Part shown: positions 38,775-64,000 of the stretch, piece by piece
How the letters are laid out: each line of letters begins with the position of its first letter
Position numbering within the stretch: position 1 is the first letter of the stretch
Assembly: GCF_965638725.1 (NCBI RefSeq)
Contig: NC_134955.1
Span: 5,624,316-5,688,315, forward strand
From: Aptenodytes patagonicus
Taxonomy: Eukaryota; Chordata; Aves; Sphenisciformes; Spheniscidae
Length of the DNA: 64,000 nucleotides
Reading direction: 5' to 3'
Translations under genes and position numbers: made by a program
The notes under the pieces: generated by a model
Told to the model about the DNA's origin: nothing
The model's database searches: none
Seen by the model: only the letters and a program-made list of their open reading frames with translations

Positions 38775-39657
38775 ACATCAGAAAAAAACATGTCTATAAA
38801 TCCAAAGAGCAGTTGCTTTTAGGATATTGCAGCTACACGTCTTCATCAGGGAATCTTACTTTTAAAATACGCTGTTTACATTTTGTCACCAACTAGGCAA
38901 GTGAAGGAGCTTAATAATTTTGGAAGGTTTTGTTTAAAGCACAAGTTATATATATATTTTTTTAATTAACAAATCTACATAAACTTTAAGATTAACATGA
39001 AGCCTAAGAGAAATATGACGGTTATGACTTAGAAAGAAATACTACATTTTGCATCTTCAATCTACTTCAAAGTGATTAAAGTCAGAAAATTACTACTAGA
39101 TACTGGAAAGAAAACTAATTCTCTTCAGAATGTGCCCAGCTCATTCCAGTGCTGTAAATATCACAAGTCAAGTCTAAATGTTACGCTGGCCTACTCAGAG
39201 GCACGAAAGCAGAGGACACAAGGAGGTGGGAAATACTAAAGGCTTAAGAGAAAGCAGTCACTAATGGATGCCTAATATGACATAAAATAAGCTGTTTGAG
39301 CAAATATGGATATAGAGATAAATGCACCTTTAGAATAGACGCAATCTGTTCCTAGAGCAGTACTGTTTGCAGTTAATGCCCTGTTTCCCCAGCAGCGCGA
39401 CTGGCTGTGCGAAGGCCACGTCCTTTCTCCGCCCGAACAGTACAGACGGATCAGCGACACTGGCCCCGACGGGCGCCAAACCCCGCGGCGCGGCGCTGCC
39501 CGCGGCCCCGAGCTGGCCCCGGAGAGGGGGGCGACGATGGCCCCCGACGAGGCCCCGCTTGCGCGGCGCCGCTCCCCGCGGAGGCGGGCGGGACGCGAGG
39601 GCGCGGCTCCCCGTGGGCTGCGGGGCGCAGCCCGCCCCCGCGGCGCGGAGTGGGCGC

Positions 39658-39678
39658 GGCGCTGTCCGCGGTGCTGAA
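39658..39678 (-). promoter_or_regulatory. RE1/NRSE (REST site) copy 1
   Basis: Read on the - strand: TTCAGCACC, two bases (GC), GGACAGCGCC. All fixed positions of the 21-bp canonical RE1 are matched. Confidence 0.88.
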
Positions 39679-39685
39679 GGGGCGC

Positions 39686-39706
39686 GGCGCTGTCCGCGGT
39701 GCTGGA
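39686..39706 (-). promoter_or_regulatory. RE1/NRSE (REST site) copy 2
   Basis: On the - strand TCCAGCACC, GC, GGACAGCGCC: one change (second base T to C) from the canonical motif, at a position where variation is tolerated in known RE1s. Confidence 0.85.
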
Positions 39707-39715
39707 GCGGGGCGC

Positions 39716-39736
39716 GGCGCTGTCCGCGGTGCTGAA
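39716..39736 (-). promoter_or_regulatory. RE1/NRSE (REST site) copy 3
   Basis: Identical to copy 1: TTCAGCACC, GC, GGACAGCGCC on the - strand. It is 665 bases upstream of the SLC17A6 ATG. Confidence 0.88.
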
Positions 39737-40228
39737 GGAGGCGAGGCGCCCTCAGGGTGCCGCTCGCCTCCGCCGCCGCCTCGGGGCGCGACCTGCGCGG
39801 CCGCGCTGGGAGCAGCGCTGCGCGGGTGGGCGGGCGGGGGCAGCGCGGACACGCCAGGGCTCCTCGCCGTCCGAGGGATTCAGCCAGCGGCTCCGGGGCG
39901 CGGGGGGCTTCGCAGCTGCCTGCCTACGGCGGCGAATCGCACCCCTCCCCCTCCAGCTCTACAGCCGGGGACACCGCCAGCGCCAAACCGCGATTGCTTC
40001 GAAACGCTCCCGCACAGGGATCTCCGTCCCCTCCCAGCCGGGCATGGCACTGCCTCCACCCGCCACCACTGAACCCTGCAAGGCCGAGAAGACTTTCTGA
40101 CCGTGCCTGGCAACTCCGCGCTGCCGGGAAACCCGGGGGCTGCCTGCAGCGCTCTCAGACTCCCCGCTCGCTGCCGCACACAGGCGCGCTCCCTCGCCCT
40201 CTCCACCCCCCGGCTCCGCACGCCGTCT

Positions 40229-40252
40229 CACACACACACACACGCGCGCACG
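40229..40252. repeat. (CA)n/(CG)n microsatellite in SLC17A6 5' region
   Basis: About eight CA units followed by CGCGCGCA; alternating purine-pyrimidine, potentially Z-DNA forming, about 150 bases before the start codon. Confidence 0.9.
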
Positions 40253-40299
40253 CTTTCTCTCACTCTCCCTTTACCCGGAGGTGCGCTGGTAGCCATTTA

Positions 40300-40317
40300 A
40301 TGAGGGGGAAAAGTTAA
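40300..40317 (+). other. Upstream ORF 1 (MRGKS)
   Basis: ATG 40300 with stop TAA 40315-40317. Only relevant if the transcript starts upstream of it. Confidence 0.45.
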
Positions 40318-40401: not shown

Positions 40402-63622
<23,221 letters not shown>

Positions 63623-64000
63623 GTATGCATTTTTGCTCATCTCACTCCAATATTGTATGACCTTACTCTACCCTTTCTAAAAATGTAAAAGCTACAATTA
63701 AGAGGCCAGAAAAAAAGAGAAGTGGGTCTGTAAAGCTAAAAATACAGTCTAGAGAAAAGGACAATGAAAGAACAGAATTTAAAGGAGAGAGTAGGAAAGC
63801 AACATTGTTAAATAAGAAGAGAAGCTAGTTCATGGTGAAACCTTCATCACTTCCAGTACAAGTAGTGCAAACTACTATGCAGATCAATAGAATCTCAGAT
63901 CATGTAACGTCGCACTTTCATTTATAAAACTGTAACTTTAGAGTACCTGCCCTGACTAAGATGCCCTGATTTTTAACTGAAGACCAACATAACTTCATTC
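63623..64000 (+). other. SLC17A6: SLC17A6 intron 6, 5' part (right window edge)
   Basis: Intronic sequence running off the window; no further exon seen. Confidence 0.85.

What the first reader, a model, noticed from the sequence alone, without database searches (positions are those of the whole stretch)
39652..39739. Three tandem canonical REST/RE1 sites in the SLC17A6 CpG-island promoter
Seen: a 28-30 bp unit repeated three times, each holding GGCGCTGTCC-GC-GGTGCTGRA, the reverse complement of the canonical 21-bp RE1 (TTCAGCACC-N2-GGACAGCGCC). Copies 1 and 3 match all fixed positions; copy 2 differs at one tolerated base. All three share orientation, at 28- and 30-bp spacing (about three helical turns), so up to three REST proteins could line up on one DNA face. 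Known: REST silences neuronal genes outside neurons through RE1s, and one RE1 per gene is usual. Inference: tandem duplication has amplified a silencer at the VGLUT2 gene, possibly setting a sharper or dose-sensitive REST threshold for glutamatergic identity in this lineage.
Basis: partly seen in the sequence, partly recalled or inferred. Interest (0 to 1): 0.85.

Follow-up and report, generated by a model that had tools for sequence, protein, structure and literature searches.

The report
Triplicated REST silencer at VGLUT2 gene
In this probably avian genome the start of the gene for the glutamate-loading protein VGLUT2 carries three head-to-tail, almost perfect copies of the DNA site used by the neuron-gene repressor REST, and it turns out to be one of many places in the same genome where such a site has been copied in tandem.

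Summary
Three same-strand canonical RE1s lie at 39658-39678, 39686-39706 and 39716-39736, 744-666 bp upstream of the SLC17A6 ATG in a CpG island. Two are perfect and one has a single mismatch; chance gives about 0.01 such sites per window. The array is best read as a REST silencer multiplied by local tandem duplication.

It is not unique. In the window's own 1.35-Gb genome, RE1s with at most one mismatch lie at 73 places. At 9 of them two or more sit within 60 bp of each other, and 17 of 73 have a further RE1-like copy within 80 bp, always on the same strand. GC-matched 21-mers in the same islands have a near copy less often: 15 of 73 (21%) for RE1 against 9.5% pooled or 6.9% averaged over places. 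Tandem RE1s are already known in mammals, for example four within 100 bp at NSF.

The 'one DNA face' argument fails (about -115 and -47 degrees), and the array is not a rarity here. REST binding, a sharper threshold, age and lineage specificity are untested; no other vertebrate genome was reachable.

The parts
39658..39678 (-). RE1 copy 1, TTCAGCACC-GC-GGACAGCGCC read on the minus strand; 19 of 19 fixed positions
   Evidence: score 34.6 of 35.2
39679..39685 (.). 7-bp linker GGGGCGC between copies 1 and 2
39686..39706 (-). RE1 copy 2, TCCAGCACC-GC-GGACAGCGCC; one substitution at RE1 position 2, also present in the printed human mir-9-1 NRSE
   Evidence: score 31.7
39707..39715 (.). 9-bp linker GCGGGGCGC between copies 2 and 3
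39716..39736 (-). RE1 copy 3, identical to copy 1
   Evidence: score 34.6
39638..39749 (.). tandem array as called by Tandem Repeats Finder (28-bp period, 3.9 copies); beyond the three RE1s the flanks do not exceed chance similarity to the unit
39486..39514 (-). remote, diverged partial copy of the unit (right half-site with one mismatch, left half-site broken); weak RE1-like score 17.6
39390..40300 (.). CpG island holding the array (G+C 0.75, CpG observed/expected 1.00)
40402..40487 (+). SLC17A6 (VGLUT2) first coding exon from ATG to a GT donor at 40488
43415..43669 (+). SLC17A6 coding exon (tblastn match; edges approximate)
44822..44944 (+). SLC17A6 coding exon (tblastn match; edges approximate)
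61722..61838 (+). SLC17A6 coding exon (tblastn match; edges approximate)
63343..63624 (+). two further SLC17A6 coding exons with the intron between them; the gene runs out of the window

Best explanation
It is a clustered RE1 (NRSE) silencer of SLC17A6. A canonical RE1 in the CpG-island promoter region was multiplied to three copies by local tandem duplication; a GGGCGC stretch precedes each copy and could have helped misalignment. In cells that contain REST, one REST molecule can bind each site through ZF3-8, up to three at once, and recruit its corepressors so that VGLUT2 stays off; in neurons, where REST is low, the promoter is freed. The array is one case of a process that recurs in this genome. 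The most likely effect of the extra copies is higher total occupancy and robustness to loss of one site, roughly additive. Shown here: the sequence, its position, the duplicated structure and the recurrence. Inferred: REST binding, silencing, any dose effect, and why copies are kept.
For: Sites and chance. Copies 1 and 3 equal the human mir-153-1/PTPRN NRSE, and copy 2's substitution occurs in the mir-9-1 NRSE (predicted sites). Gene: the joined window exons match VGLUT2 at 549 bits, VGLUT3 at 421 and sialin at 168; no VGLUT1 chain was among the matches, and pieces are 90-97% identical to a VGLUT2 probe, apart from one piece aligned across an intron. Genome census: 18 exact, 86 with at most one mismatch, 201 with at most two; 0 for the reversed control each time. 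Recurrence: 9 of 73 places hold 2-4 RE1s of at most one mismatch with neighbouring starts at most 53 bp apart (C13 has five if two mismatches are allowed), with tandem units of about 24-53 bp. 17 of 73 have a same-strand neighbour within 80 bp and none an opposite-strand one at up to three mismatches (17 of 17 same strand, P = 1.5e-5), as expected of tandem duplication. Enrichment over GC-matched 21-mers of the same islands: 15 of 73 against 6.9% or 9.5% (P = 0.0001 or 0.003). Two REST molecules bind natural tandem NRSEs 9 bp apart at CELSR3 in EMSA. Two tandem NRSEs on a driver transgene bias expression to the nervous system in zebrafish.
Against: No binding or expression data for this species. 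I saw no tie of REST to SLC17A6 in print (details in Tried and rejected). The 7-bp gap between copies 1 and 2 is shorter than the 9 bp tested at CELSR3. In zebrafish, tandem NRSEs placed only on the UAS reporter did not restrict expression. [quoted passage not shown] The transcription start was not mapped. Among the three copies the core is not clearly better kept than the linkers (1 of 21 and 1 of 21 against 1 of 7 and 2 of 9). The control is not perfect: arrays have more chances to be found by a motif search than single sites, and control 21-mers lie farther from the island centre.
Confidence: 0.75

Rival explanations
1. Only one RE1 matters. The array is an RE1 caught in a GC-rich minisatellite, and the extra copies are neutral by-products of slippage that change repression little or not at all.
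For: The same islands carry other tandem repeats: 6.9-9.5% of GC-matched 21-mers have a near copy too. Copies and linkers are alike. Over all 9 arrays the core differs at 11 of 315 and the better-matching flank at 17 of 210 positions (P = 0.028), but cores were picked for matching the consensus, so this test is biased towards the core. One strong RE1 can silence: 31% of 8,436 canonical sites repress strongly in MPRAduo, sites within 5 kb upstream of a start excluded.
Against: RE1s have tandem neighbours about two to three times as often as matched 21-mers of the same islands, and tandem-repeat coverage is higher at and near the RE1 (16% at its centre, up to 19% within 60 bp, 4-9% at 120-500 bp); both are open to the biases named above.
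Confidence: 0.35
2. A sharpened or dose-sensitive switch: neighbouring REST molecules act cooperatively and set a special threshold for glutamatergic identity in this lineage.
For: Three strong sites at short spacing. Natural tandem sites can hold two REST molecules.
Against: The sites are out of phase. The held study of tandem NRSEs reports one molecule per site and has no word beginning 'cooperat'. Arrays of varied spacing, 24 to 70 bp, occur at many other places, so nothing singles out SLC17A6.
Confidence: 0.1
3. The array serves another transcript, for example a divergent non-coding RNA from the same CpG island, rather than SLC17A6.
For: In human, lnc-FANCF-3:1 is listed as bidirectional to SLC17A6 (PMC4913242).
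Against: RE1s act in either orientation (recalled), so both would be affected; SLC17A6 is the only protein-coding start that I found near, 666 bp away.
Confidence: 0.08
4. Assembly or sequencing artefact.
For: GC-rich bird promoters are hard to assemble (recalled). Reads were not available.
Against: A 79-bp array with distinguishable copies, shorter than one short read, on a 74-Mb contig, and the same structure with other units at many places.
Confidence: 0.03

Closest known systems
NSF regulatory region, human: four predicted NRSEs in under 100 bp (PMC1794552; section 6 read)
   Same: Several RE1s packed within about 100 bp at a presynaptic gene
   Different: Different gene; whether those sites arose by tandem duplication is not said in what I read
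CELSR3 first exon and PCDH gamma-a tandem NRSEs, human (PMC8096226; passages read)
   Same: Same-orientation tandem NRSEs; two REST molecules per probe in EMSA; 9-bp gap as between copies 2 and 3
   Different: CELSR3 sites are noncanonical (written left-11bp-right) and number two; here three canonical sites
NPAS4, human: three predicted NRSEs over 3 kb
   Same: Three sites at one gene
   Different: Dispersed, not tandem
Synthetic 2xNRSE cassettes in zebrafish (PMC3529185; passages read)
   Same: Tandem canonical NRSEs upstream of a promoter bias expression to the nervous system
   Different: Engineered, two copies
Eight other tandem RE1 arrays of the same genome: C2, C6, C13, C15, C16, C18, C21, C23
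   Same: Same-strand tandem copies of an RE1-bearing GC-rich unit; C13 has five copies, C18 and C23 three
   Different: Units of about 24 to 53 bp with different linkers, so the duplications look independent; most copies carry one mismatch

Membership tests
Canonical RE1/NRSE | Left half-site TTCAGCACC, 2-bp spacer, right half-site GGACAGCGCC | tested here: met
   copies 1 and 3 perfect, copy 2 one mismatch
Canonical RE1/NRSE | Weight-matrix score in the range of accepted sites | tested here: met
   34.6, 31.7, 34.6 against leave-one-out scores of 9.2 to 33.3 for 14 printed human NRSEs. JASPAR MA0138.2 and its 20.86 threshold were not available and not computed
Functional REST silencer | REST occupancy in cells that express REST | not testable with these tools
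   needs ChIP-seq or CUT&RUN
Functional REST silencer | Silencing activity that depends on the RE1 | not testable with these tools
   needs reporters or editing
Functional REST silencer | Location at a neuronal gene | tested here: met
   SLC17A6/VGLUT2; array 666-744 bp upstream of ATG
Tandem NRSE | Two or more NRSEs, same orientation, far enough apart for separate REST molecules | tested here: inconclusive
   gaps 7 and 9 bp; 9 bp is bound by two molecules at CELSR3, 7 bp not known
Tandem duplication | The repeat unit extends beyond the motif into the linkers | tested here: met
   29-bp family, copies 93 and 100% identical to the first
Lineage-specific duplication | Single copy in outgroups | not testable with these tools
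   no other vertebrate genome is held

The most novel reading that the evidence does not exclude
In this bird lineage tandem duplication inside CpG islands is a general, selectively favoured way of strengthening REST control: about a fifth to a quarter of strong RE1s sit in same-strand arrays, copy number varies and tunes the REST level at which each neuronal gene is released, and the SLC17A6 triplet does this for neurotransmitter identity.
Probability: 0.2. Interest if true: 0.7.

Novelty: new member of a known kind. Interest (0 to 1): 0.52.

Why it matters
RE1 is a long, nearly unambiguous motif, so a silencer can be read from sequence. A genome in which 17 of 73 strong RE1 places have a tandem neighbour offers a natural series of one to five copies, with which to test whether REST silencing adds up, saturates or cooperates. 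It also adds local tandem duplication to transposon-borne copying (title of Johnson 2006 as cited, paper not read) as a way RE1s multiply. If the copies are neutral, the set still gives a clean measure of motif turnover in CpG islands.

Tried and rejected
Rejected: same-face alignment of the three sites. Rejected: extra decayed copies immediately left or right of the array (similarity reached by 11.4% and 10.5% of equal-length random pieces), so Tandem Repeats Finder's 3.9 copies should be read as three. The remote partial copy at 39486-39514 is real by similarity (0 of 2000), but its RE1 score of 17.6 is exceeded by 2 of 30 whole-window shuffles, so I do not count it as a site. My own first view, from exact matches only, that just two places in the genome hold several RE1s, was too narrow and is replaced.

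Tried without result: linking REST to SLC17A6 in print. Searches list 7 different papers that hold the terms; I saw passages of 5 (PMC8125694, PMC5448011, PMC13118504, PMC4913242, PMC3988108), none with a tie; PMC6607231 and PMC8471187 were not opened. One search lists 25 of 68 papers; of those listed only PMC8125694 holds Slc17a6. PMC4913242 first looked as if it placed REST at SLC17A6, but its list was chosen by H3K4me3. PMC4587775, on Slc17a6 promoter methylation, has none of the REST terms; passages of PMC12645552, PMC4055426 and PMC4499139 gave nothing on SLC17A6. One search also lists PMC8626589, PMC8851790, PMC6393535 and PMC3917250 with phrases on several RE1s or NRSEs; I did not open them. 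(chick) was seen as a listing only. CR1 tail octamers in the window: none. Rfam: none. Core-against-flank constraint: P = 0.15 on two arrays, P = 0.028 on nine with a known bias. A control with an unrelated long motif (CTCF) did not complete; the control stands in for it. Naming genes beside the other RE1s from ORFs gave little.

Full report
The sequence. Searching the window for GGCGCTGTCC-NN-GGTGCTGAA on both strands with up to three mismatches gives three matches and no others: 39658-39678 (perfect), 39686-39706 (one mismatch) and 39716-39736 (perfect). The dinucleotide-shuffled expectation is 0.01 and 0 of 100 shuffles hold three. Read on the minus strand the copies are TTCAGCACCGCGGACAGCGCC, TCCAGCACCGCGGACAGCGCC and TTCAGCACCGCGGACAGCGCC. 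Starts are 28 and 30 bp apart; the gaps are GGGGCGC and GCGGGGCGC. Tandem Repeats Finder calls the array independently, and the direct-repeat search shows a 29-bp family whose identity continues into the linkers, which is what tandem duplication of a unit looks like.

Motif strength. I built a weight matrix from the 14 distinct human NRSEs printed in Table 1 of PMC1794552 (16 rows, two duplicates dropped). Left one out, these sites score 9.2 to 33.3. The three copies score 34.6, 31.7 and 34.6 of a possible 35.2; the next best 21-mer in the window scores 17.6, and the best of 2000 shuffles of the CpG island scores 24.8. One of the 14 sites, listed for mir-153-1/PTPRN, is identical to copies 1 and 3, which lifts their score a little; left out, that same 21-mer still scores 33.3. 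The T-to-C change of copy 2 occurs in the mir-9-1 site. The JASPAR matrix used in the RE1 reporter screen of PMC9903721 (section 10 read) was not available.

Place. The array lies in a CpG island (39390-40300, G+C 0.75, CpG observed/expected 1.00), 744 to 666 bp upstream of an ATG at 40402. Six coding pieces lie downstream in order (the probe was human VGLUT2 recalled from memory). Joined, they match the solved VGLUT2 at 549 bits, VGLUT3 at 421 and sialin at 168. The gene is SLC17A6. The transcription start was not mapped.

The same genome. The 19 fixed positions are matched exactly 18 times, with at most one mismatch 86 times and with at most two 201 times; the reversed control gives 0 each time. 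The 86 sites fall into 73 places. At 9 of the 73, two to four of them stand on the same strand with neighbouring starts at most 53 bp apart: C2 (34), C6 (34), C7 SLC17A6 (28, 30), C13 (25, 49, 27), C15 (24), C16 (30), C18 (34, 34), C21 (44) and C23 (53). Read out in full, C13 has five copies at up to two mismatches and C23 three at up to three. Units and linkers differ from array to array, so the duplications look independent of each other. I then took the sequence around all 73 places. A further RE1-like copy (up to three mismatches) within 80 bp on the same strand is present at 17 of 73; on the opposite strand at none, with one at four mismatches. If copies arose one by one by mutation, both strands would be seen; 17 of 17 on one strand (P = 1.5e-5) speaks for tandem duplication.

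Is that special to RE1? Other 21-mers of similar G+C in the same 73 stretches, at least 170 bp from the RE1, have a same-strand near copy (up to three differences) in 2267 of 23920 cases (9.5%), or 6.9% averaged over places; without low-complexity words 5.7% and 4.4%. The RE1s have one in 15 of 73 (21%) by the same test; binomial P = 0.003 against 9.5% and 0.0001 against 6.9%. With up to two differences it is 12 of 73 against 8.0% and 5.9% (P = 0.013 and 0.001). Coverage by tandem repeats with units of 22-60 bp is 16% at the RE1 centre, 15-19% within 120 bp and 4-9% at 120-500 bp. So RE1s are in arrays two to three times as often as their surroundings. Two biases push the same way: a motif search finds multi-copy places more easily, and the controls lie nearer the island edge. 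A control with an unrelated long motif was asked for eight times and not answered. I therefore hold the enrichment as likely, not proven.

Constraint and age. Between neighbouring copies of the 9 arrays the core differs at 11 of 315 positions and the better-matching flank at 17 of 210 (P = 0.028), but the cores were selected for matching a consensus, so this favours the core by construction. At SLC17A6 alone the difference is small and rests on a few bases. The array cannot be dated here; no other vertebrate genome was within reach.

Geometry. At 10.4-10.5 bp per turn, 28 bp is 2.67-2.69 turns, 30 bp 2.86-2.88, and copies 1 and 3 are 5.5 turns apart: phase shifts of about -115, -47 and -160 degrees. 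The sites are not on one face. PMC8096226 (passages read) shows two shifted bands, hence two REST molecules, on the CELSR3 tandem site whose two NRSEs are 9 bp apart. Our 9-bp gap is therefore known to be permissive; the 7-bp gap is not.

What is known. PMC1794552 (section 6 read) finds more than one NRSE at 75 of 566 predicted human target genes, four within 100 bp at NSF and three within 3 kb at NPAS4; that count spans up to 100 kb around each start, so it is not comparable with the 80-bp count here. PMC2573930 (passages) maps 716 predicted RE1s onto 665 REST-bound clusters because some clusters hold several. PMC4371837 (passages) mentions regions with multiple RE1 sites. PMC3529185 (passages) uses two tandem NRSEs to bias driver transgenes to neurons, without effect on a UAS reporter alone. 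Clustered RE1s are a known kind. I did not find in print this cluster, nor a tie of REST to SLC17A6 (open-licence library only; two of seven candidate papers unopened). Johnson 2006 was not held.

Verdict. A real, strong, tandemly triplicated canonical RE1 at the SLC17A6 promoter, most likely part of a working REST silencer, and one of the best members of a set of tandem RE1 arrays in this genome. Whether three copies do what one cannot is open.

Noticed in passing
L019:4866-5013 (genome C13:1677365-1677512): Five same-strand RE1s (four with one mismatch, one with two) in a 25-bp minisatellite, the largest RE1 array seen; another 32-bp minisatellite lies just beside it.
   Followed up: partly
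L022:4955-5043 (genome C18:10314354-10314442): Three RE1s in a 34-bp unit repeated three times; an ORF about 2.7 kb away looks like the end of a LIM-homeobox protein (recognised from memory only).
   Followed up: partly
L020:4971-5015 (genome C15:15457670-15457714): Two RE1s in a 24-bp perfect tandem duplication about 0.5 kb from an ORF that matches vimentin at 51.6 bits, an intermediate-filament gene that resembles neurofilament heavy to my memory.
   Followed up: partly
L017:4792-4846 (genome C2:55843791-55843845): Two RE1s in a 34-bp tandem duplication directly upstream of an ATG that opens a short reading frame MVFAPG ending at a GT donor; gene not identified.
   Followed up: no
L009:4632-4719 (genome C21:384631-384718): A 44-bp tandem duplication carrying two perfect RE1s, 40 of 44 positions alike with all differences outside the core, about 33 kb from a POU class 3 gene (best match POU3F1).
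   Followed up: partly
39486-39514: A diverged partial copy of the RE1 unit 166 bp upstream of the array.
   Followed up: partly
44001-45000: A second GC-rich stretch (G+C 0.61) inside SLC17A6 around the coding exon at 44822-44944, possibly an internal CpG island.
   Followed up: no
40849-40889: An ATA microsatellite of about 14 units in the first intron after the ATG of SLC17A6.
   Followed up: no
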